A stretch of DNA of 64,000 bases, taken from contig CANDVA010000004.1 of assembly GCA_947389015.1 (NCBI GenBank), positions 62,001 to 126,000 of the forward strand, read 5' to 3'. The position numbers were made by a program, and so were the translations under genes. Each line of letters opens with the position of its first letter. The stretch's first letter is position 1. Shown piece after piece: positions 289 to 42,939 of this stretch. The notes beneath the pieces were generated by a model. It ran no database searches. It was not told the origin of the DNA and saw only the letters and a program-made list of their open reading frames with translations. The stretch comes from an uncultured Clostridia bacterium (GTDB lineage Bacteria; Bacillota; Clostridia; Oscillospirales; Ruminococcaceae).

Positions 289-425
289 CTTCGCTTGTAT
301 ATAAACTTACAACTTCACACGGAAAAAGTTACTGTATTTGCATATATTATATCATAAAGTCTTAAAAATTGCAACCATTTTTTGATAATATATGAAATAT
401 CAACAACTTTTCTGAGGTGAAGCAT

Positions 426-803
426 ATGAAAGAGGCATACGACTGTGGTTTGATAATAAAAGAGCTGCGCGAAAAAGCGAATATGACGCAGCAGGAGCTT
501 GGACGAAAAATAAACCGCGATAAGGGCATAATATCTAGATATGAGAATAATTACCAACCTGTTCCGTTTGAGACAATGCGAACATTCGCCGCGATCTTTA
601 ACGTTTCAATGGACTACCTAGCGGGAATGGAGAAGCAGCGCAGTATTTCCACAATGGGGCTAACCGATGAACAAATAGAAATAGTGCAGTCCCTATCAGA
701 TACCTTTCGGGAAATGAACATCGGAAAATCCATAGATAAATCATCCGAGCAGTATAATGTCCTTGGAAAAATTCTTGTCAACCTATTCAAAGGAAAAAAA
801 TAA
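426..803 (+). CDS. XRE-family transcriptional regulator of the element
   Basis: A 125-residue protein with an N-terminal helix-turn-helix of the Cro/CI type at about residues 8-62: IIKELREKANMTQQELGR, then a recognition helix ending ISRYENN, then a terminal VSMDYLAG. The C-terminal 60 residues are helical and unassigned, probably for dimerization. The start is ATG 426, because GAGGTG (414-419) sits six bases upstream; a GTG at 417 would lie inside that ribosome-binding site. The gene is divergent from the partial gene at the left edge, so it probably controls that intergenic region, as element repressors commonly do. It is followed at once by a hairpin terminator. Confidence 0.8.
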   Translation: MKEAYDCGLIIKELREKANMTQQELGRKINRDKGIISRYENNYQPVPFETMRTFAAIFNVSMDYLAGMEKQRSISTMGLTDEQIEIVQSLSDTFREMNIGKSIDKSSEQYNVLGKILVNLFKGKK

Positions 804-855: not shown

Positions 856-1056
856 TTATGTAGCTTGTTGTTTCAAATCCTCAACGATCCTGCTTACAAT
901 ATACTTACGTTCCTCGGAGGTAAGGTCGGCATTCCGAAATTTCTTCCCGACGATATGGCAGAACAACGCATTTGTTTTCTCTTGAAGCGCGTCCAGTGAT
1001 TCCTTATCCTCCGGCATATGAATTATTACGTTTATCTCCTGTGTCTTGCGCGGCAT
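856..1056 (-). CDS. Small element-encoded protein of unknown function (66 aa)
   Basis: Charged 66-residue protein beginning MPRKTQEINVIIHMPED, with a helical C-terminus (EERKYIVSRIVEDLKQQ). AAAGGAG lies nine bases before ATG 1056, so the start is well supported. It is the last gene of the leftward run after the DNA-binding protein and relaxase genes, 80 bp beyond the relaxase stop, and ends before a strong terminator. Its size and position would suit a relaxosome accessory protein or a recombination directionality factor, but no motif decides between these. No family is recognised. Confidence 0.65.
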   Translation of the reverse strand: MPRKTQEINVIIHMPEDKESLDALQEKTNALFCHIVGKKFRNADLTSEERKYIVSRIVEDLKQQAT

Positions 1057-1136
1057 ATAGATCAGCTCCTTTGGTGTATTATAGTAATAATATGTAATCC
1101 AGTTTGTACATAATTACAAAAGAGCATGACCAATCA

Positions 1137-1592
1137 TCATTCATTAAAATAGGTTTTGTAAACCTTATTCACATAGGCTTTGAGCCTTGTAAGATCGCAG
1201 ATATCCTCGCTGTACTTATGCCCGTCAACAAAGCTGACGGTATTAAACACAAAATGAATATGCGGATTATCCGTATCCTCATGAACCCCAAACACTATCT
1301 GATATCTACCCGCATAGTAAGCGGCTATCCGATATCCGAGAATATATGCGTCATAAGGCGATATATCATCCTCAAAGCTAACAATAAAGTGCCGCATCAT
1401 CCTCCGGGACGTTTTATTGTAGCATTCTTTCACAAGAACCATCTGCTCGTCTGCCCTTGAAATATCAACATTAAACCCTCCAAAATATCTGACAGGCTGT
1501 TTTGTTCGCTTGTCGGTCAAAGCATAATTAACAAGGTTAAATATGCTGGAGAAATTCTTGTAAGGATCGCTTACCATTTTAACAATGCACAT
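1137..1592 (-). CDS. Minimal HUH-type relaxase (MobA/VirD2-like nuclease domain only)
   Basis: A 151-residue protein with the signature of the relaxase/mobilization nuclease family. A Tyr-bearing N-terminal motif (LVNYALTDKRT, Y23) is the likely nucleophile, and the metal-binding triad is H104, H111 and H113 in VHEDTDNPHIHFVFN. Relaxases nick one strand at oriT and stay attached to its 5' end during conjugative transfer. Typical members run to several hundred residues with extra C-terminal domains; this one stops at the end of the nuclease fold. ATG 1592 follows GGAGGG by three to four bases and overlaps the upstream DNA-binding-protein gene by 22 bp, implying coupling. An intact HUH triad argues for activity despite the size. 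Confidence 0.8.
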   Translation of the reverse strand: MCIVKMVSDPYKNFSSIFNLVNYALTDKRTKQPVRYFGGFNVDISRADEQMVLVKECYNKTSRRMMRHFIVSFEDDISPYDAYILGYRIAAYYAGRYQIVFGVHEDTDNPHIHFVFNTVSFVDGHKYSEDICDLTRLKAYVNKVYKTYFNE

Positions 1593-1837
1593 AAACCCTC
1601 CGCACAATCATTATACAGTTTTTTGATCTCATCATTCCATTGTTCCATAGGAATTACTGCCAGTTCTCTAATTGTCAGCATTCTGCACATTATCTCGGGA
1701 GATACAACGTTCTGTTCAGCAGAGACGGATTCTAAGATAAAATCGCCCAACGGAAGATTGCGTTCTTTTGCTTTGCGGCTAACTATATTAAAACATTCAT
1801 CAGTCATTCTAATTGTTTTTGGTTTTTTATCACTCAT
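1571..1837 (-). CDS. Small MobC/RHH-like DNA-binding protein, relaxosome accessory
   Basis: An 88-residue protein starting MSDKKPKTIRMTDECFN, a basic N-terminus followed by a short strand and helix as in ribbon-helix-helix or MobC-type accessory factors. Such proteins bind oriT beside the relaxase and often repress their own promoter. The ATG at 1837 has GGGAGGA seven bases upstream; in-frame codons further upstream lack a ribosome-binding site. The relaxase gene overlaps its 3' end by 22 bp. The palindromes at 1943-1977 and 2201-2257, immediately upstream, are plausible binding sites. Family assignment rests on size, N-terminal pattern and context. Confidence 0.65.
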   Translation of the reverse strand: MSDKKPKTIRMTDECFNIVSRKAKERNLPLGDFILESVSAEQNVVSPEIMCRMLTIRELAVIPMEQWNDEIKKLYNDCAEGLCALLKW

Positions 1838-4951: not shown

Positions 4952-4980
4952 TTGACATCTCCCCGAAAAAGTGCTATAAT
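4952..4980 (+). promoter_or_regulatory. Perfect consensus promoter of the serine recombinase
   Basis: TTGACA (4952-4957), 17 bases, TATAAT (4975-4980), with a start expected near 4987. This rules out an in-frame TTG at 4952 as start codon. It is a vegetative (sigma-A) type signal, unlike a mother-cell-specific promoter. Confidence 0.85.
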
Positions 4981-5008: not shown

Positions 5009-6658
5009 ATGAAAATCGCGATATATTCAAGAAAATCCAAGTTCACGGGCAAAGGCGAGAGCATAGGCAACCAGATACAGCTCTGCCGCGAATACATATC
5101 CGCCCACTTTCCCGAGGCGCGCGACGAAGAAATATTCGTATACGAGGACGAGGGCTTTTCGGCTAAGAACCTCGACCGCCCGCAGTACCGCGAAATGATG
5201 CGGAACGCCCGTAGATCCCCATTCGATTGCATTGTCGTGTACCGTCTTGACCGAATAAGCCGCAACGTAGGCGACTTTGCAAGCCTTATTGAGGAGCTTA
5301 ACGGAATGCACACCGCGTTCATCTGCATTAAGGAGCAGTTTGATACCTCCACCTCAATGGGCAGAGCAATGATGAATATAGCAGCGGTTTTCGCCCAGCT
5401 TGAACGCGAAACAATTGCCGAAAGAATACGCGATAATCTGATATTGTTAGCGCGCACGGGTCGCTGGCTCGGCGGAGTCACGCCGCTCGGATATATCGGC
5501 GAGAAAACCGAAATAACCGACAGCGAGGGCAAAAAACGTTCCGCATATAAGTTAAAGCAAATCCCCGCGGAGATCAAGACCGTCAAGCTGATCTACGAAA
5601 AATTTCTGGAGTTTCAGTCAATGACAAAAGTGGCAACGTGGCTAATTCATCACGATATAAAAACGCGCGAGGGCTGCGAATTTCGTCTCCGCGCAGTCAA
5701 GGATATATTGAAGAACCCCGTTTATTGTATCGCCGATCAACAGGTTATAAACTATTTCACGGAGCTAGGCAGCAGCGTATGCTTTGATGTGACCGAAACC
5801 GACGGAAAGCGCGGACTTATGCCGTTCCGCCGCACGGCGCAAAGCGGAAAGCAGCAGCACCGCACAACTCCCGACGAGTGGATAATCGCCCTCGGAAAGC
5901 ATACGGGAATTATCACGTCCGAAGTCTGGCTGAAAGCGCAGTCGCTTATAGGCGAAAACGCTCACAAAACGTTTTACCGCCCCGTTCGCAGCGAGGTGAG
6001 CATTTTTTCGGGGCTTGTCCGATGCGCCGACTGCGGCAACATAATGCGCCCCCGCGTCAATTCCAACAAGCGACGCAATCCCGACGGCTCTCAGACGTTC
6101 AGCTATATGTGCGAGTTTAAGGAACGCTCCAGAAAGTCCAAATGCACAATGAAGAACGTAAACGGAAACGTTCTCGATAAGCTGATATGCGACGAGATAT
6201 TAAAGTTCAATCAGCCCAAGTCCACGGTAGGCAGACAACTCGATCAACTGATGAAAAAGTCAAGCCAAACCGCCGAGGATAATTCCGCAAAGCTGACCGA
6301 ACTGCAAAAGCAGATCGACGCCAAACAGAAAATGATATCAAACCTGATGGACGCGCTTGCAAAATCCGAGGACAGCTCCGCAATGTTCTCCTACACCACC
6401 AAAGAGGTCGAACGTCTTGACGGCGAGATCAAAGCGCTGCAAAACGAGATCGCCGAGCTTAGCTTTCTCGGCGACGAAAATCTTGAACGCCACCGGCAGC
6501 TCGACAATATCCTCAAATCGCTCAAGCGTTTCAAGGATTGCTTCGATACTCTGTCGACAGTCGAAAAGCGCGATTATATGCGGCAGGTAATCGACCGAAT
6601 AGAATGGGACGGTAAAAACGCGCATATTTTTATCAAGCGTGCAGACGGTAAAACATAA
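5009..6658 (+). CDS. Large serine recombinase (SpoIVCA-like integrase/excisionase)
   Basis: A 549-residue member of the large serine recombinase family. An N-terminal resolvase domain (about 1-150) carries the catalytic Ser7 in AIYSRKS and the YRLDRISRN motif. A recombinase domain follows (about 165-290), then a zinc ribbon (about 336-390, CADCG and later Cys residues) and a coiled coil (about 415-510). It would integrate and excise the element by strand exchange at short att sites. AAGGAG (4997-5002) lies seven bases before ATG 5009. The gene converges on the truncated sigK frame and overlaps its last 26 bp, as expected for an integrase next to its att site. Its base composition resembles the chromosome, unlike the ATPase gene. 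Confidence 0.92.
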   Translation: MKIAIYSRKSKFTGKGESIGNQIQLCREYISAHFPEARDEEIFVYEDEGFSAKNLDRPQYREMMRNARRSPFDCIVVYRLDRISRNVGDFASLIEELNGMHTAFICIKEQFDTSTSMGRAMMNIAAVFAQLERETIAERIRDNLILLARTGRWLGGVTPLGYIGEKTEITDSEGKKRSAYKLKQIPAEIKTVKLIYEKFLEFQSMTKVATWLIHHDIKTREGCEFRLRAVKDILKNPVYCIADQQVINYFTELGSSVCFDVTETDGKRGLMPFRRTAQSGKQQHRTTPDEWIIALGKHTGIITSEVWLKAQSLIGENAHKTFYRPVRSEVSIFSGLVRCADCGNIMRPRVNSNKRRNPDGSQTFSYMCEFKERSRKSKCTMKNVNGNVLDKLICDEILKFNQPKSTVGRQLDQLMKKSSQTAEDNSAKLTELQKQIDAKQKMISNLMDALAKSEDSSAMFSYTTKEVERLDGEIKALQNEIAELSFLGDENLERHRQLDNILKSLKRFKDCFDTLSTVEKRDYMRQVIDRIEWDGKNAHIFIKRADGKT

Positions 6659-7046
6659 CTCCTTCACGGATTATTTGCGGAGCAAACAAGAGTTTCCGCA
6701 AGTGTGCAATAGCATTATCAATGCACTTTGACGCGTAAGTACTGAACTGATTACCCTTCAGGTAATCGAACGTCTCTGCGGCGCGGATAAGCCCGATCGT
6801 ACCGATGGAAACAAGATCGTCTGGATCCTTGGCGTCAGGATAGTTCTTCTTGACAATATACGCGACAAGCCGCATATTATGTACAATGAGCCTATCGCGG
6901 GCATTCATATCACCCTGCGCAATTTGACGTATGCATTCTGCTTCTTCCTTTGCGGAGAGCTGTTTCGGAAACATATTCTTCCTGTCAAAATGCAATCCGA
7001 AAAAGAGCAGATTATCCAATGCCAGCTTTAAAAGCAATACCCCCAT
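6633..7046 (-). CDS. sigK: 5' portion of pro-sigma-K gene, interrupted after region 2
   Basis: A 137-residue frame. Residues 1-22 are a hydrophobic pro-sequence (MGVLLLKLALDNLLFFGLHF). Residues 26-118 match sigma-K regions 1.2 and 2: FPKQLSAKEE, IVHNMRLVAYIVKK, SIGTIGLIRAAETF, TYASKCIDNAIAHLRK. IVHNMRLVA..IVKK is closer to sigma-K than to sigma-E. After HLRK (115-118) homology stops and 19 unrelated residues lead to a stop inside the recombinase gene. Regions 3 and 4, including the -35 reading domain, are missing. ATG 7046 has GGAGGT six bases upstream. Sigma-K drives late mother-cell transcription in sporulation. The most likely state is a gene split by the element and restored by excision; permanent inactivation is the alternative. 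Confidence 0.85.
   Translation of the reverse strand: MGVLLLKLALDNLLFFGLHFDRKNMFPKQLSAKEEAECIRQIAQGDMNARDRLIVHNMRLVAYIVKKNYPDAKDPDDLVSIGTIGLIRAAETFDYLKGNQFSTYASKCIDNAIAHLRKLLFAPQIIREGVMFYRLHA
6675..6701. other. Candidate attachment-site junction inside sigK
   Basis: Perfect 7-bp inverted repeat TTGCGGA (6675-6681) and TCCGCAA (6695-6701) around a 13-base centre. One arm encodes the last sigma-K-like residues (HLRK, 6693-6704); the other lies on the element side, 17 bp from the recombinase stop. Short imperfect inverted repeats around a small core are the usual form of serine-integrase att sites. The exact crossover cannot be fixed without the second junction. Confidence 0.55.
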
Positions 7047-7080
7047 AAGATTACCTCCATACAAAATAAAGGAGTTGTTT

Positions 7081-10056: not shown

Positions 10057-12315
10057 TCACTTTTTGGTAAATCTTCTTGGGCGCTCGATTCGGTCGATCT
10101 GAACCTCGTCCGCGCGGCGGTGACACATAGGACACTCGTCGTCGATAATACCCGTAAATCCGCAGCAAGGGTCGCGGTCGATCGGGTGATTGATAGCGCC
10201 GTAGCCTATCCCCTGCTCCTTCATATAACGCACCACTTGCTCGAACGCGTCAAGATTTTTCAGCGGGTCTCCGTCAAGCTCCACATAGCTGATATGCCCG
10301 CCGTTCGTCAGCGCGTGATACGGAGCCTCAATACGTATCTTCCTGAACGCGCTTATCGGATAATAAACGGGAACATGGAACGAATTTGTGTAATAATCCT
10401 TGTCGGTTATCCCCTTGATCTCGCCGTAGCGCTTCTTGTCGATAGCGATAAATCTTCCCGAAAGCCCCTCGGCGGGGGTCGCAAGAAGGCTGAAATTAAG
10501 CCCCGTCTTTTTTACCTGAGCGTCGACCTTTTCACGCATATGCGTGATTATCTCAAAACCGAGTTTCTGCGCATCCTCGCTTTCGCCGTGATGTACACCG
10601 ATAAGCGAAATAAGACATTCCGCTAGCCCGATAAATCCTACGGACAACGTGCCGTGCTTCAATATCTCGCCTATATTGTCGTTCTCGGAAAGCTTTTCGG
10701 AATCTATCCACACGCCCTGCCCCATAAGGAACGGATAATTCTTAACACGCTTCTGACATTGTATCTTAAAGCGCTGCAAAAGCTGCTCGAACACCATCTC
10801 CATAGTATCGTCAAGCGTTTTGTAAAACCTATTGATATCGCGGTTTGCCTCGATGCCAAGTCTGGGGAGGTTAATAGTGGTAAAGCTGAGGTTTCCCCTG
10901 CCCGTGACTATCTCACGCGACTTGTCGTAATTGTTGCCGATAACGCGTGTGCGGCATCCCATATAGGCGATCTCGGTGTTGTAATCGCCCTCCTTGTAAA
11001 ATTGCAGATTGAACGGCGCGTCGATAAAGCTGAAATTCGGAAACATTCTCTTAGCAGAAACGCGCATAGCAAGCTTGAAGAGATCGTAATTCGGCTCGCC
11101 CTCGTTGTAATTTACGCCCTCTTTTACCTTGAAGATGTGTATCGGAAAGATAGGGGTCTCACCGTTTCCGAGACCGCTCTCGGTCGCAAGCATAACGTTT
11201 CGCGTTACCATTCTGCCCTCGGGCGAGGTATCCGTGCCATAGTTTATCGAGGAGAACGGATTTTGAGCACCCGCACGGGAATTCATAGTATTGAGATTAT
11301 GGATAAGAGCCTCCATCGCCTGATAGGTCGCGCGGTCTGTTTCCGCCTCCGCAAGCTGCTCGGCGTCGTCCTGAAGCTCCGTGAACTTATCGCCGAACTC
11401 GGGAGCGAGTATCTCCCACTCCTTTGCCTTGTAATCATAATTATCCTGCAGTCTCGGATACAAGCCAAATTCCGTTTCGATCTTCTCTTCGGTCTGCTTC
11501 AGCTTATCGCGTATCTCGTTGTAGTCCTTTCCGAACGTGTACAGCACAGCCTTTGCGAGGTTGGTGATATACATTCTCCTGAACGTTTTCTTAACGCCCT
11601 CCGCCATTGCATAATCGAAATTCGGAACAGACTGTCCGCCGTGCTGATCGTTCTGGTTTGACTGAATGGCAATGCAGGCAAGCGCCGCATAGCTTGAAAT
11701 ATCATTCGGCTCACGCAGAAAGCCGTGACCCGTAGAAAAGCCGCCGTGAAACAGCTTAAGCAGATCGATCTGACAGCAGGTAGTGGTAAGCGTCAAAAAA
11801 TCAAGATCGTGTATATGGATATCGCCGTTTATATGTGCATTGGAGTGTGCCTCGTCGAGCACATACATTTCATTGAACTGCTTTGCGCCCTCGCTGCCGT
11901 ATTTCAGCATCGTACCCATAGCAGTATCGCCGTCAATATTTGCGTTCTCGCGCTTGATATCGCAGTCCGCAGCGGACGAAAACGTCAGGTTCTCGTATAT
12001 CTTCATAAGCGTGGAGTCCATCTCACGGCGTCTTGTGCGGTCGGCACGGTAAAGAATATACGCCTTTGCCGTCTTGGCGTGACCGCCCTCTATCAAAACG
12101 CGCTCCACCACGTCCTGAACCTCCTCGACCGAAGGATTTCGCCCGATTATTGTCTCCGACAGCTTCTGGCAAACCTCGTCGGCAAGCTGCATAGCCTCGC
12201 TGTAATCGTTGCCGCCGACCGACTGCGCCGCCTTATAAATAGCCCCCGCGATCTTTTCAATATTGAACGGAACCTGTCTGCCGTCACGCTTATTTATCAT
12301 TGTGATCATTGCCAT
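10057..12315 (-). CDS. nrdD: Class III (anaerobic) ribonucleoside-triphosphate reductase, apparently lacking the glycyl-radical tail
   Basis: 752 residues. An N-terminal ATP-cone (about 5-95, from KRDGRQVPFNIEKI) is the allosteric domain. The catalytic barrel follows, and the C-terminus holds the zinc site with Cys717/718, Cys728 and Cys731 (DPCCGFTG, CPMCHRR). The enzyme reduces NTPs to dNTPs without oxygen. Family members continue after the zinc site into an R-I-T/C-G-Y-L motif with the radical glycine; here the frame ends DRIERPRRFTKK and stops with TGA-TAA, and no such motif appears in the other two frames. ATG 12315 follows AAGGAG by nine bases. It is co-transcribed with nrdG. Confidence 0.93.
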   Translation of the reverse strand: MAMITMINKRDGRQVPFNIEKIAGAIYKAAQSVGGNDYSEAMQLADEVCQKLSETIIGRNPSVEEVQDVVERVLIEGGHAKTAKAYILYRADRTRRREMDSTLMKIYENLTFSSAADCDIKRENANIDGDTAMGTMLKYGSEGAKQFNEMYVLDEAHSNAHINGDIHIHDLDFLTLTTTCCQIDLLKLFHGGFSTGHGFLREPNDISSYAALACIAIQSNQNDQHGGQSVPNFDYAMAEGVKKTFRRMYITNLAKAVLYTFGKDYNEIRDKLKQTEEKIETEFGLYPRLQDNYDYKAKEWEILAPEFGDKFTELQDDAEQLAEAETDRATYQAMEALIHNLNTMNSRAGAQNPFSSINYGTDTSPEGRMVTRNVMLATESGLGNGETPIFPIHIFKVKEGVNYNEGEPNYDLFKLAMRVSAKRMFPNFSFIDAPFNLQFYKEGDYNTEIAYMGCRTRVIGNNYDKSREIVTGRGNLSFTTINLPRLGIEANRDINRFYKTLDDTMEMVFEQLLQRFKIQCQKRVKNYPFLMGQGVWIDSEKLSENDNIGEILKHGTLSVGFIGLAECLISLIGVHHGESEDAQKLGFEIITHMREKVDAQVKKTGLNFSLLATPAEGLSGRFIAIDKKRYGEIKGITDKDYYTNSFHVPVYYPISAFRKIRIEAPYHALTNGGHISYVELDGDPLKNLDAFEQVVRYMKEQGIGYGAINHPIDRDPCCGFTGIIDDECPMCHRRADEVQIDRIERPRRFTKK

Positions 12316-12333
12316 TGTTAGGTGCTCCTTAAC

Positions 12334-12399
12334 TTTACTACATATTGTACCGATAATACAATATACTTCTATTATATAGTATTTCCAAGTTTTTGTCAA
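12334..12399 (-). promoter_or_regulatory. nrdDG promoter with tandem NrdR boxes
   Basis: Minus-strand promoter TTGACA (12394-12399), 17 bases, TATAAT (12371-12376). Two NrdR-box-like sites follow on the minus strand: TACTATATAATAGAAG (12366-12381), overlapping the -10, and TACAATATGTAGTAAA (12334-12349). They are separated by 16 bp, so they repeat every 32 bp (three helical turns), the spacing known for the NrdR repressor. The nrdR gene is not in the window. Confidence 0.75.
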
Positions 12400-12512
12400 G
12401 GGAGTTTTCTCAAAATCCTCAAAATTTTAAAAGATTATATACACAACCGAATAACTCCTCTCCTTAAATGGCGCCCGAATACAATACATACAATTTCTAT
12501 AAGAAAAGTCGC

Positions 12513-28141: not shown

Positions 28142-29428
28142 TTACCCCAAAACGGACAGCAATACGCCCGCCGCGACTGCGGAGCCTATAACGCCCGCGA
28201 CGTTCGGACCCATTGCGTGCATAAGCAGGAAGTTGGAGGGATTGGTCTGCGCGCCGACCTTCTGCGACACGCGCGCCGCCATAGGAACGGCGGAAACGCC
28301 CGCGGAGCCGATAAGCGGATTTATCTTCTTTCCGGAGATGATATACATCAGCTTGCCGAGCAGGACGCCGCATGCCGTGCCGACGCAGAACGCGATCAGA
28401 CCAAGCACGATAATGAAAATCGTTTTCCAGCTGAGGAAGTTATCCGCAACAGCGGTCGCGCCGACCGTAATACCCAAGAATATCGTAATAATGTTCATCA
28501 GCTCGTTCTGAGCGGTCTTGACAAGTCTGTCGCAAACACCCGACTCCTTCATGAGGTTACCGAACATAAGGATACCGACCAACGGAGCAGCCGACGGAAC
28601 GATCAGCGAAACTATAACGGTAACGGCAATCGGGAATACAACCTTCTCAATCCTGGATACCTCACGGAGCTGCCCCATCTTTACAGCGCGTTCCTTTTCG
28701 GTTGTAAGTGCCTTCATAATAGGCGGCTGAATAACGGGAACCAGCGCCATGTACGAATACGCCGCGACCGCAATCGAGCCCAACAGCTGCGGCGCCAGCT
28801 TAGACGTAAGGTAGATCGCCGTAGGACCGTCCGCGCCGCCAATAATCGCAATGGACGCCGCTTCTTTAAGCGTGAAACCGTCGAAGCCGATCCCCGACAG
28901 ATCGAAGAAGTTCAGCAGACACGCTCCGAGGAACGTAAAGAAAATACCGCCTTGAGCAGCTGCGCCGAGCAAAAAGCTCTTTGGGTTAGCAATCAGCGGA
29001 CCGAAATCGGTCATAGAGCCAATGCCGAGGAAGATAAGCGGCGGATATATCTGAAGCTTAACACCCAGATACAGCATATCTAACAGGCCGCCCTCGTGCA
29101 GTACCCTGCCGTAATCAAGCGAGGTCTCCGGCATAAATATCGACATATATATCTGACCGCCCAATCCCGCGTCAACGTAAGTCGGCGCGAAATAGGGGTT
29201 GGTCGCGGGATCCCACAGCTCAGGGTGATAAAGCCCCGTAAGCGGCAGGTTGGTGAGCAACATACCGAACGCTATAGGCAGCATAAGCAGCGGTTCATAC
29301 TGCTTGACGATCGCGAGATAAAAAAGGACGAACGAAAGGAGGATCATAATTATGCATCTGATATCGCTCAATCCCGTAAAACCGGATGTGTCAATAAGTC
29401 CGGTTATCGTACTTTTAAATATTTCCAT
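28142..29428 (-). CDS. oadB: Sodium ion-translocating decarboxylase, beta subunit
   Basis: 428 residues, a polytopic membrane protein of the OadB/GcdB/MmdB family. Characteristic segments are FLGIGSMTDFGPLIANP and the conserved sodium-site motif IGGADGPTAIYLTSKLAP, plus GVSAVPMAARVSQ towards the end. It couples decarboxylation of a carboxybiotin substrate to export of sodium ions. The carboxyltransferase (alpha) and biotin carrier subunits are not adjacent, so whether the substrate is oxaloacetate, methylmalonyl-CoA or glutaconyl-CoA cannot be told. AAAGGAAAA precedes ATG 29428; oadG lies 17 bp upstream. Confidence 0.93.
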   Translation of the reverse strand: MEIFKSTITGLIDTSGFTGLSDIRCIIMILLSFVLFYLAIVKQYEPLLMLPIAFGMLLTNLPLTGLYHPELWDPATNPYFAPTYVDAGLGGQIYMSIFMPETSLDYGRVLHEGGLLDMLYLGVKLQIYPPLIFLGIGSMTDFGPLIANPKSFLLGAAAQGGIFFTFLGACLLNFFDLSGIGFDGFTLKEAASIAIIGGADGPTAIYLTSKLAPQLLGSIAVAAYSYMALVPVIQPPIMKALTTEKERAVKMGQLREVSRIEKVVFPIAVTVIVSLIVPSAAPLVGILMFGNLMKESGVCDRLVKTAQNELMNIITIFLGITVGATAVADNFLSWKTIFIIVLGLIAFCVGTACGVLLGKLMYIISGKKINPLIGSAGVSAVPMAARVSQKVGAQTNPSNFLLMHAMGPNVAGVIGSAVAAGVLLSVLG

Positions 29429-40372: not shown

Positions 40373-41239
40373 TTACAAAAACTTAACGACAGCCGTACTT
40401 CCGCAGGGAAGCGACAGACCCGTCTGCTTAACGGGCAAACCTATCTCCTCGGACATCACCTCAATAGGAAAGCGTTTGCCGACCGTCATTTGCAGCAGAT
40501 AGCTCATAACCGAGGCGGACAGCCCCGTGGTATACGAATTCAGCAGCACGAACAGCGGCTTATCCGACAGCAGCGACGTAATGTCCTCCATTAAACCGTA
40601 AATGCTGTCCTCCAACTTCCACATCTCGCCGTTAGTCCCGCGACCGTAGCTTGGAGGGTCTAGGATAACTCCGTCGTATTTTGTTCCGCGGCGTATCTCG
40701 CGTCGGATAAATTTATTCGCGTCGTCGACTATCCAGCGTATCGGCTTGTCATCAAGCCCCGAGAGCTTGGCGTTCGTCCGCGCCCAGTCCACCATACCCT
40801 TTACCGCATCGCAGTGGCAAACAGAGGCGCCCGCCGCGGCGCATGCCAAAGTTGCGCCGCCCGTATACGCAAACAGATTAAGGACGTTGACGGGTCTCCC
40901 GACCGCGCGGATAATGTCGCCGCAGTAATCCCAATTGACCGCCTGCTCGGGGAACAGCCCGGTATGCTTGAAGCCCGTGGGCTTCACCATAAAGCGCAAG
41001 CTGCCGTAGCTTATATGCCAGCTTTCGGGGAGCTTGCGGCGGTAATCCCAAGAGCCGCCGCCCGACGAGGAACGAATATACCGCGCGTGTGCAGAAGCCC
41101 ATTTCGGAGACTCCCCCTCGTTTTTCCAGATTATCTGCGGGTCGGGACGTATCAAAGTTACATCACCCCAACGCTCCAGCCGCTCGCCGTCGGCGGTATC
41201 TATAAGCTCATAGTCGATCCAGTTATCGGAAATTCTCAT
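40373..41239 (-). CDS. Class I SAM-dependent methyltransferase (RlmI/RlmK-like)
   Basis: 288 residues with the family start DYELIDTADGERLERWGDVTLIRPDPQIIW, the SAM site VLNLFAYTGGATLACAAAGA and the target-base motif DPPSYGRG. Relatives methylate cytosine or guanine in 23S rRNA; the N-terminal PUA domain of RlmI is missing. ATG 41239 is preferred, as AGAGGT lies seven bases upstream and it matches the family N-terminus. An in-frame TTG at 41383 would add 48 acidic residues with only a poor ribosome-binding site. Confidence 0.82.
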   Translation of the reverse strand: MRISDNWIDYELIDTADGERLERWGDVTLIRPDPQIIWKNEGESPKWASAHARYIRSSSGGGSWDYRRKLPESWHISYGSLRFMVKPTGFKHTGLFPEQAVNWDYCGDIIRAVGRPVNVLNLFAYTGGATLACAAAGASVCHCDAVKGMVDWARTNAKLSGLDDKPIRWIVDDANKFIRREIRRGTKYDGVILDPPSYGRGTNGEMWKLEDSIYGLMEDITSLLSDKPLFVLLNSYTTGLSASVMSYLLQMTVGKRFPIEVMSEEIGLPVKQTGLSLPCGSTAVVKFL

Positions 41240-41399
41240 AAAAAAACCTCTGAATATTTCTTCCTTATTATTTTCCACAAATTTTATCAATAGATCGCCG
41301 AGCGACGGCTCGATATTGTAATATTCGGTATCCACGGTCTCGTATCCGTCCTCGTCGCCATCGTCGCGCTCCTTCTTAGCCAATGCCTTTCAGATAAAT

Positions 41400-42359
41400 T
41401 CAGATAACAGCCGCTCTGCCGTTCGGAAAGTCGCCCTCCCAGCCGCACGGTAAATATCCGTCTTGATAGATTTCAAGCAGCGCGGTGAAAAAGCCTGTTA
41501 TGTTCAGCGCTTTTTCGACTGCCGCCCAGCACAGATCGCGCTTTACCATATCGGCTATCTCCTCGTCAAGAGCGTTTTCTTCCTCCAATCCGCCGCGCGC
41601 TCTGAATGACTGCCATTCGTTCCATATATCTTTGTCAAGCGCCATTGAAACGGTCTCAAAGATATCGTCTGCCGCGTCGTCACCGATCATCTTCTCCGCC
41701 AGCTTCTCCAAAAAGCATATCTGCGGCTCCCATACGCTTAAATAATTCGCGTTCCAATTGTCGTAGGCGTCGTATATCGAACGTACCAACAAATATTTAT
41801 CGCACGGCTTGCCGCTGTTTTTGAACCACTTTATTGACCTGACCTCCTCGATAAAACGTTCTGAAACACTCCGTTTAAGATATTCGTCCAACAACTCATA
41901 CGAAACGCTGCCCTTACCGTGAACCATATTTATCGCATTCTCAACAGGAACCCACTCTGCGCTGTCGACCTCACCCGAAATCGTAAGATCCGCCTTTTCC
42001 GCGCGGGCGATAAAGCCGATCATCATCATTCCCTTTTTGGCGAACCAGTACGTTCCGATAAGACGGCAGTTATCAAACTCTATTCCTATCTCCTCGGCTA
42101 CCTCGCGGCGCGCCGTCTCCTCCGCGCTCTCGCCGGGCTTGATGAAACCCGAAACAAGAACGCGGTATTCCGTCGACATATAGTTCTGCCGAAGCAAAGC
42201 CGCCTCGCCGTATTCGTTGACTACAAGCACGATCACCGCGCTTGAAAACATATCGAACCACGGACAACCGCATTTTTCGCAGAACGGAACGTCCCCCTCG
42301 TCGCCAATAGGTTTAATTATCAGCCTTTCCCCGCAATCGGGGCAGTATTTGAATCTCAT
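41400..42359 (-). CDS. NUDIX hydrolase with zinc ribbon and helical C-terminal extension
   Basis: 319 residues. An N-terminal four-cysteine zinc ribbon (Cys6, 9, 27, 30) as in NADH pyrophosphatase NudC is followed by a Nudix domain with the box GFIKPGESAEETARREVAEEIGI (about 72-94). NudC-type enzymes cleave NADH or NAD-capped RNA. Residues from about 160 form a mainly helical region (e.g. WNANYLSVWEPQICFLEKLAEKMIG) with no recognised family, roughly doubling the usual size. GAGGTAA precedes ATG 42359. Confidence 0.85.
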   Translation of the reverse strand: MRFKYCPDCGERLIIKPIGDEGDVPFCEKCGCPWFDMFSSAVIVLVVNEYGEAALLRQNYMSTEYRVLVSGFIKPGESAEETARREVAEEIGIEFDNCRLIGTYWFAKKGMMMIGFIARAEKADLTISGEVDSAEWVPVENAINMVHGKGSVSYELLDEYLKRSVSERFIEEVRSIKWFKNSGKPCDKYLLVRSIYDAYDNWNANYLSVWEPQICFLEKLAEKMIGDDAADDIFETVSMALDKDIWNEWQSFRARGGLEEENALDEEIADMVKRDLCWAAVEKALNITGFFTALLEIYQDGYLPCGWEGDFPNGRAAVI

Positions 42360-42363
42360 AATG

Positions 42364-42939
42364 TTACCTCATAATTTTTTTGTTGGCGTGACCGTAATGT
42401 ATCACAGCGGGAGCGTAGCTTAATATCAATTCCCAATCCTCCCGCAGCGCCGTATTATTTTCATATGCGCCGATAAATTCAAACGGCTCCAGATCACCCA
42501 CAAAGCAGTTACCGTCGTCAAATATAACGGCGATACCGTCACTGCTATGACTTTTTGTCGGGATTATTTCGCCTTGTATTCCCGTATCGCGCAGAATGTC
42601 CCTGCTTTCCTCACAGGCTATCACAAGCGCTTTGCTTTCATCTATCGGCTTGTAATTCAAGCGCGGTTCACGCCGAAATATCTCGTCCGAAAAATGAACG
42701 TATCCGAGCTGATGTTCTGTCAGCAGCAATTTAACTCCAAGCTCCGTCAATTCGCCGATAAGTCCCATATGATCGGGATGATAGTGCGTGGCGAGAACGT
42801 ATTTTATGTCCGTGGCAGAAATATTGTTCCTCTTTATTTCTTTGTAAAAAGCAGGAAGCGTTCCCGCGTAATCGGTATCGATCAGCAGTCCGCTAATAAA
42901 GTAGGTATTTGTATTCCCGTATTTAAGTTTTGTGATCAT
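42364..42939 (-). CDS. MBL-fold metallo-hydrolase
   Basis: 191 residues with the metallo-beta-lactamase metal motif THYHPDHMGL and later Asp/His ligands (SHSSDG, VGDLEPF, HYGHAN). The substrate is unknown; glyoxalase II-like thioesters or lactones are common in the fold. The start is ATG 42939 with AGAGGT six bases upstream. The gene lies 30 bp after the 166-aa hypothetical and 4 bp before the NUDIX gene. Confidence 0.85.
   Translation of the reverse strand: MITKLKYGNTNTYFISGLLIDTDYAGTLPAFYKEIKRNNISATDIKYVLATHYHPDHMGLIGELTELGVKLLLTEHQLGYVHFSDEIFRREPRLNYKPIDESKALVIACEESRDILRDTGIQGEIIPTKSHSSDGIAVIFDDGNCFVGDLEPFEFIGAYENNTALREDWELILSYAPAVIHYGHANKKIMR

What the first reader, a model, noticed from the sequence alone, without database searches (positions are those of the whole stretch)
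5009..7046. sigK split by a serine-recombinase element: a skin-type insertion
The leftward frame has a pro-sigma-K pro-sequence and regions 1.2-2, and loses homology exactly at HLRK (residues 115-118). Within 35 bp lies the stop of a large serine recombinase reading towards it. Sporulation genes nearby (spoIVA, sipL, pdaA) suggest a sporulating host, so sigK should be needed. The parsimonious reading is a developmental element excised in the mother cell to rebuild sigK.
Basis: partly seen in the sequence, partly recalled or inferred. Interest (0 to 1): 0.88.

Follow-up and report, generated by a model that had tools for sequence, protein, structure and literature searches.

The report
Split sigK with its own recombinase
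A gut bacterium keeps the gene for its last spore-making switch cut in two by a movable piece of DNA that it most likely cuts out only in the doomed mother cell, and in some of its relatives the two halves lie the other way round, so that rebuilding the gene would break the mother cell's chromosome into two circles.

Summary
The window carries the 5' half of sigK; the 3' half lies 38.8 kb to the left on the same contig and strand, in the right order. No second sigK was found. The join restores CIDN|QIKMYFRK in frame, and 24 of 24 intact congeners read CIDN-QIKM there. Of 43 genomes of the genus, an orthologue of this large serine recombinase (LSR) is in 13 of 13 split ones, 0 of 24 intact ones and 0 of 6 without a 5' half. 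The att sites have inverted arms. A 59-67 aa protein with a conserved promoter motif is the likely directionality factor. So this is a skin-type element, new to this genus; excision itself could not be observed. Following the relatives showed something stranger. In a clade of eight species the halves appear to lie in reversed order (seen on one contig in four), with 47-59 kb of core chromosome between them (polC, frr, his genes), the LSR beside the 5' half and no discrete element. Recombination there would rebuild sigK on a circle carrying essential genes, tolerable only in a terminal cell. Both halves and the LSR are under purifying selection.

The parts
6714..7046 (-). sigK 5' half: residues 1-111, ending CIDN at the crossover site
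   Evidence: TIGR02846 positions 5-118; 94% identical to the nearest intact congener G014 over 113 residues; end of homology
6692..6722 (-). attL: sigK ...ATTGATAAT joined to the element arm GCTATTGCACACTTGCGGAAAC; the partner attR lies outside the window at contig C4:29907-29944 (window position -32,093 to -32,056)
   Evidence: inverted arms 75% identical in this genome; mean 0.74 over 10 genomes against 0.39 for shuffled arms
5009..6658 (+). large serine recombinase, convergent with the sigK 5' half (orthologue only in split-sigK genomes)
   Evidence: Pfam Resolvase, Recombinase, Zn_ribbon_recom; 13 of 13 split genomes
4952..4980 (+). perfect sigma-A-type promoter TTGACA-17-TATAAT of the recombinase
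   Evidence: 12 of 12 positions, 0 of 300 shuffles as good
856..1056 (-). 66-aa protein, candidate recombination directionality factor
   Evidence: homologue directly upstream of and divergent from the LSR in 9 of 12 genomes examined, present in 11 of 12 sigK-type LSR loci; alignment A2; no match to a described family
1087..1117 (-). conserved promoter-like motif GTAATNNTGTACAA-N9-CATANTAT of the small gene
   Evidence: one copy in each of 11 of 13 split genomes, none in 30 others; control pattern 0
1137..1607 (-). MobA/VirD2-type relaxase fragment inside the element
   Evidence: Pfam PF03432, 77.7 bits
2284..4863 (+). 859-aa element protein of unassigned family; related stretches (31% and 21% identity) lie beside the LSR in the G030 element
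   Evidence: only a weak HTH_56 match under its cut-off; two stretches in G030
417..803 (+). helix-turn-helix regulator inside the element
   Evidence: Pfam HTH_3

Best explanation
The window holds the 5' side of a 38.8 kb sigK-intervening (skin-type) element. A large serine recombinase in the element joins attL (end of the 5' half) to attR (start of the 3' half) at a shared TAAT core and so rebuilds sigK in frame. A 66-aa protein with its own conserved promoter motif most likely switches the recombinase to the excision direction in the mother cell. In a clade of eight congeners the same machinery works on halves in reversed order, separated by 47-59 kb of essential chromosome. There the reaction must release a circle that carries the rebuilt sigK, which is possible only because the mother cell is terminal. 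Shown: the anatomy, the in-frame rejoin, the co-occurrence, the selection and the synteny (both halves on one contig in four of the eight). Inferred: timing, cell type, the directionality role of the small protein and the actual excision.
For: 3' half on the same contig, strand and order. Rejoined sequences read CIDN|QIKM in 10 of 10 split genomes holding both halves, with no stop; 24 of 24 intact genes have CIDNQIKM. LSR orthologue in 13 of 13 split, 0 of 24 intact and 0 of 6 genomes without a 5' half. Inverted att arms. Small gene beside the sigK-type LSR in relatives and its promoter motif in 11 of 13 split and 0 of 30 other genomes. Median dN/dS 0.06 and 0.04 for the halves and 0.12 for the LSR in the reversed-order clade. 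SigE, SigF, SigG, SpoIIID and SpoIVA are present in G000. LSR remnants lie next to sigK pieces in G062 and G012. G022, intact and without the LSR, is nested in the reversed-order clade.
Against: No junction reads and no sporulating culture. The genomes with split sigK that could be named are all metagenome assemblies. The G000 element also holds genes that look chromosomal (MCP, Gfo/Idh, DsbH-like), relatives of two of which lie just downstream of intact sigK in G014, so its history is not one simple insertion. The small protein matches no known directionality factor family. The att arms are hardly more alike within a genome (0.74) than between genomes (0.71). SpoIIID was not found in two of the 13 split genomes.
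Confidence: 0.88

Rival explanations
1. sigK is dead: a mobile element broke the gene and the lineage no longer makes sigma-K; the halves are remnants.
For: Six of 43 genomes have no 5' half at all (completeness 73-99%), and G000 itself has a second, decayed 3' half.
Against: Both halves and the LSR are under strong purifying selection in the reversed-order clade; ten of ten rejoined genes are open; the LSR is kept in every split genome, and in intact ones no orthologue is found or only remnants (G062, G012); SpoIIID is present in 11 of the 13 split genomes (not found in G002 and G030).
Confidence: 0.05
2. The two halves act as two polypeptides, a split sigma factor, without DNA rearrangement.
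For: The 3' half has an in-frame ATG.
Against: By eye no ribosome-binding site precedes that ATG; the conserved sequence there is the att arm. A split protein would not explain the one-to-one presence of the LSR or the inverted arms.
Confidence: 0.02
3. Ordinary mobile element that is lost only now and then in the germ line; the cell simply does without sigma-K while it is present.
For: G022 and other intact genomes among split ones show that intact sigK and the split state alternate within the genus.
Against: In the reversed-order clade the halves are fixed inside core chromosome, where germ-line excision would remove polC and frr, yet the whole system is kept.
Confidence: 0.05
4. The reversed order in the eight species is an assembly or binning artefact.
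For: The assemblies are metagenomic. In four of the eight the halves lie on different contigs (G006, G013, G033) or the 3' half is missing (G002). In G033 the genes beyond MATE are shuffled relative to G005.
Against: Four separate assemblies (contigs of 162, 195, 196 and 408 kb) show both halves on one contig, one strand and in reversed order. G005 and G065 were compared in full and share the genes inside and outside. G006 and G013 have the same flanks at both halves, G033 at the 3' half and on the left of the 5' half, G002 at the 5' half.
Confidence: 0.03

Closest known systems
skin element of Bacillus subtilis (spoIVCB / spoIIIC / SpoIVCA)
   Same: sigK split into a 5' and a 3' piece rejoined in frame by a site-specific recombinase coded in the intervening DNA (PMC4191935, passages read)
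   Different: In B. subtilis the recombinase is under sigma-E (PMC4191935); here the LSR of G000 has a sigma-A-type promoter. Cargo differs: a relaxase and HTH genes rather than an evident prophage, as far as scanned. The att sites were not aligned with those of B. subtilis.
skinCd of Clostridioides difficile (CD1231 LSR, CD1234 directionality factor)
   Same: LSR under sigma-A, plus a separate small protein (72 aa there, 59-67 aa here) with its own promoter; att sites with inverted repeats (PMC5025042, passages read)
   Different: The small protein here matches no described family; CD1234 itself was not compared. Reversed-order halves are not described in the passages read.
SPbeta/spsM and gin/gerE gene-intervening elements
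   Same: A recombinase plus an additional factor rebuilds a sporulation gene (PMC4191935: sprA and SprB, 58 aa; PMC5595907: GirC and GirX; passages read)
   Different: Other host genes; no reversed order of the halves in the passages read.
Reversed-order ('inside-out') sigK of eight congeners (this work)
   Same: Same LSR family, same att cores, same rejoined codons, same small gene
   Different: 3' half upstream of the 5' half; 47-59 kb of essential chromosome between them; no discrete element; no recognisable sigma-A-type promoter at the LSR

Membership tests
sigK-intervening (skin) element | sigK split into two halves whose join restores the intact reading frame | tested here: met
sigK-intervening (skin) element | halves on one strand in 5'-to-3' order with the element between them | tested here: met
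   met in G000 (38.8 kb) and G063 (about 6.7 kb between the halves); NOT met in G005, G007, G010 and G065, where the order is reversed; not determinable from one contig in the other 7 split genomes
sigK-intervening (skin) element | large serine recombinase gene inside the element | tested here: met
sigK-intervening (skin) element | attL and attR with a shared core and inverted arms | tested here: met
sigK-intervening (skin) element | no other functional sigK in the genome | tested here: met
   (genome 96% complete)
sigK-intervening (skin) element | recombination directionality factor | tested here: inconclusive
   candidate 66-aa protein with conserved neighbourhood and promoter motif; activity not testable here
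sigK-intervening (skin) element | excision confined to the mother cell during sporulation | not testable with these tools
   needs reads or cultures
sigK-intervening (skin) element | prophage-like gene content (typical, not required) | tested here: inconclusive
   15 ORFs inside the element and 5 flanking ones scanned with Pfam: relaxase, HTH, dynamin-like, HerA-like, resolvase and others; no phage structural gene seen, but at least a dozen element ORFs were not scanned

The most novel reading that the evidence does not exclude
In eight species of this genus the skin element has been turned inside out. sigK is rebuilt on an excised 47-59 kb circle that carries polC, frr, pyrH-like and his genes, so late sporulation in the mother cell depends on programmed splitting of its chromosome into two circles. 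The arrangement is stable because rejoining attL and attR rebuilds sigK whatever the order of the halves and the mother cell leaves no descendants. The LSR has lost its housekeeping-type promoter, as expected if leaky recombination is lethal. G022 would be a fossil of the same reaction in the germ line.
Probability: 0.7. Interest if true: 0.92.

Novelty: new variant of a known kind. Interest (0 to 1): 0.8.

Why it matters
Every skin-type element in the passages read is a removable insert. Here the recombination machinery outlived the insert and is fixed in core chromosome, which implies that a bacterium can depend on breaking its own chromosome in a terminal cell. That makes a long-standing question testable: whether these rearrangements are tolerated parasites or domesticated developmental switches. 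The one-to-one tie of LSR and split sigK, the absence or decay of the LSR where sigK is whole, and the different LSR promoter in the dangerous arrangement all argue for domestication. The set also provides 13 LSRs with their attL (ten with both att sites) and a candidate directionality factor family with no match above cut-off in the three libraries searched.

Tried and rejected
Considered and rejected: a dead sigK, a two-polypeptide sigma factor, and an assembly artefact (see rivals). I first thought that all the extra 3' halves came from elements which restore the gene on insertion. The sigK side of the copies displayed is of the attB type, which does not fit simple gene-restoring integration, so this is left open. 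A sigma-E/SpoIIID reading of the small gene's promoter is only suggestive: CATANTAT resembles a sigma-E -10 box and TGTACAA a SpoIIID-like box (sigma-E consensus recalled; a C. difficile SpoIIID consensus seen in a passage of PMC5025042); I did not derive a consensus from this genus.

Led nowhere: paper searches for Ruminococcus plus sigK plus sporulation plus spoIVCA (0 papers) and Oscillospir plus sigK plus skin plus sporulation (0 papers); tblastn of the small protein in phage records (none); Pfam, PHROGs and NCBIfam for the small protein (nothing over a cut-off). Structure model of the small protein: a two-helix hairpin, mean pLDDT 83.8, pTM 0.50; not searched further. In one search the regex for intact sigK upstream regions caught only 3 of the 6 genomes asked for, so no conclusion is drawn from it. 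The arm test is weakest for G033 (0.58, with 40 of 13,952 windows as good); five genomes had no window as good and four had 3-5, which may include the true sites themselves (not separated). The LSR promoter match of G030 is weak (10 of 12; 18 of 300 shuffles as good).

Full report
OBSERVATION. The window is bases 62,001-126,000 of contig C4 of a 2.9 Mb, 49-contig assembly. The minus-strand frame at window 6633-7064 is the N-terminal half of SigK (TIGR02846 positions 5-118). The LSR at window 5009-6658 (+) has the three expected domains. Comparison with intact relatives puts it about four codons earlier, after CIDN (window 6714); the residues AIAHLRK are encoded by the element's attachment arm.

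THE OTHER HALF. A region-4 hit lies on C4:29565-29735, minus strand. It is the C-terminal half (TIGR02846 positions 115-226). The cores are 38,795 bp apart, and joining them reads CIDN|QIKMYFRK with no stop. The joined protein scores 236.5 bits against TIGR02846 and the intact gene of congener G014 scores 241.4; neither reaches the curated 298.65. Other spore sigma factors seen in G000 are SigE, SigF and SigG, and the genome has one sigK 5' half and no intact sigK at the thresholds used.

THE GENUS. 43 genomes of the genus are held. A sigK 5' half occurs in 37 and a 3' half in 36. By my reading, sigK is intact in 24 (G026 and G029 counted as intact because the match runs through the junction to a contig end), split in 13, and without a 5' half in 6. 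The LSR orthologue (58-82% identity to the window's) is in exactly the 13 split genomes; the only other hit is a 41% paralogue in G064. The stop that one search counts inside seven of these matches is the last codon of the match, the gene's own end (compare). Fisher's test gives 3e-10 over the 37 genomes, but the species are related, so this is not a true probability. On a sigK tree the split label needs 7 changes, at least 5 of them forced by well-supported branches, so the state came and went repeatedly; three split rows there hold the 5' half only. A scan of genome contigs (84,980 species; exact matches to two peptide patterns, so not exhaustive) found 38 related LSR loci. Of the 12 most similar, 11 have a sigK 5' half in the locus; the twelfth is a 6.2 kb contig. 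None of the other 26 has one. One of those 26, a Roseburia MAG (L152), has a sigK-3'-like stretch beside a 37% LSR.

SITES. attL reads TGTATTGATAAT (or close to it) then an arm of the form [GC]C[AT]AT..CAC....CGGAA; attR reads GTTTCC....GTGTnAT, a few bases, then TAA[TC]CA. The two arms are inverted copies of each other: mean identity is 0.74 in the ten genomes with both, against 0.39 (s.d. 0.02) for shuffled arms; between genomes it is 0.71. G033 is the weakest at 0.58. Intact genes read TGTATTGATAATCA[AG]AT.AAAATG or close to it. The likely crossover is the AA of TAAT; this is inference.

SMALL GENE. In G063, which has a complete element with only about 6.7 kb between the halves, a 67-aa ORF lies divergent from the LSR. 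Homologues lie 78-147 bp upstream of the LSR, counted from the likely ATG, in nine of the twelve genomes examined. Eleven of the 12 sigK-type LSR loci of the public scan hold one (the exception, L127, begins 386 bp before the LSR), against none of 26 other LSR loci. In G000 and G030 it is about 4 and 3 kb away. Its upstream motif GTAATNNTGTACAA-N9-CATANTAT occurs once in each of 11 genomes, all split, and in none of 30 others; the reversed control pattern has no hit. Split genomes G003 and G028 lack an exact match. The protein fits no described family and is modelled as a helical hairpin. More distant relatives of the protein do occur in some genomes without a split sigK (G008, G015, G016, G019, G026). 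C. difficile works in the same way, with a constitutive LSR and a sigma-E/SpoIIID-controlled 72-aa factor (PMC5025042, passages read). I therefore propose this protein as the directionality factor; that is inference.

INSIDE-OUT CLADE. In G005, G007, G010 and G065 both halves are on one contig and one strand, but the 3' half comes first; they span 47.3-59.1 kb. In G005 and G065, compared in full, the DNA between them is ordinary shared chromosome. Pfam confirms RRF, undecaprenyl synthase, GcpE (IspG), DNA polymerase III alpha (PolC type by its exonuclease domain and length), histidinol dehydrogenase and fructose-bisphosphate aldolase in G005. frr is single-copy in the ten genomes tested and lies inside this segment in these four. 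The outer flanks of G005 and G065 are conserved chromosome too: MBOAT and neighbours on the left, the LSR and then a carbamoyltransferase gene (aspartate/ornithine type) and its neighbours on the right. G006 and G013 have the same flanks at both halves, on two contigs. G033 has them at the 3' half and on the left of the 5' half, with its LSR on a third contig and some shuffling beyond MATE. G002 has them at the 5' half, and its 3' half was not found. All eight thus appear to share the arrangement. Because attL x attR always joins 5' to 3', recombination here would release a circle carrying sigK and the essential genes. Median dN/dS in this clade is 0.056 (5' half, 8 sequences, 26 of 28 pairs unsaturated), 0.040 (3' half, 7 sequences, 19 of 21) and 0.119 (LSR, 8 sequences, 18 of 28). 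SpoIIID was found in 7 of the 8 (not in G002). The LSR has a sigma-A-type promoter (10-12 of 12 positions; G030 weak) in 5 of 5 other split genomes, but only 7-9 of 12, no better than shuffles, in 8 of 8 inside-out ones. These eight share ancestry and count as perhaps one event.

A REVERSION. G022 has intact sigK and no LSR orthologue. Its order is his...HK-sigK-MATE-MBOAT...-aro. A tree of nine core proteins (4,097 columns, rooted on G000 alone) places it inside the inside-out clade as sister of G006 and G013 (99/99). The simplest reading is that the circle once formed in the germ line and was reinserted, after which the LSR and small gene were lost. Two independent origins of the inside-out state are not excluded.

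WHAT IS LEFT OPEN. Twelve sigK 3' halves of G016 and G031 (one of them the active one) have median pN 0.014, pS 0.53 and dN/dS 0.018, although these genomes lack the LSR family. Of the 11 orphans, six keep GTTTCC of the arm exactly, four with one mismatch, and one (G016 C5) has lost it. Not all orphans are sound: one of G015 has a small deletion at its start and that of G062 has stops. LSR remnants adjoin the intact sigK of G062 and an orphan 3' half of G012. G000 itself has a second, decayed 3' half and an LSR remnant. How these copies arise and why they are conserved is unexplained.

NOVELTY. skin-type elements are known in Bacillus and Clostridia (PMC4191935, PMC5025042, PMC5595907, passages read). 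I found no paper with these terms for this group, and none on reversed-order halves in the listings; most subscription papers are not in the library. The window element is a new member of the kind. The inside-out arrangement is, as far as these searches show, a new variant.

Noticed in passing
L051-L054, L063, L083 (G016), L055-L056 and L082 (G031): Multiple orphan sigK 3' halves, mostly with a conserved att arm, dN/dS 0.018 at pS 0.53, in genomes without this LSR; G031 has four and no 5' half was found in it.
   Followed up: partly
L012:1723-2046 and L012:4745-4922 (G000 C4:25723-26046, 28745-28922): A second, decayed sigK 3' half and an LSR N-terminal remnant beyond the live 3' half: an older layer of insertion.
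   Followed up: partly
L120:5669-6272 (G062), L080:8632-8970 (G012): LSR pieces directly beside an intact sigK (G062) and beside an orphan 3' half close to a contig end (G012): the recombinase seems to decay once sigK is whole.
   Followed up: partly
L010:2963-6025 (G000 C4:32963-36025): Gfo/Idh and DsbH-like genes inside the G000 intervening DNA; relatives (88% and, over a part, 80%) lie just downstream of intact sigK in G014.
   Followed up: no
L064:7545-11543 (G063): The smallest complete element carries a 1332-aa frame that looks like a secreted glycoside hydrolase (by eye, no family search) as its main cargo.
   Followed up: no
L152:3238-5291 (Roseburia MAG, CAMTDY010000143.1): A 37%-identical LSR followed by a sigK-3'-like stretch (45%): possibly an independent skin-type element.
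   Followed up: no
L010:6955-8529 and 10854-12428 (G000 C4:36955-38529, 40854-42428): Two similar 524-aa frames inside the element; the first is an AAA-ATPase/PD-(D/E)XK protein by Pfam.
   Followed up: no
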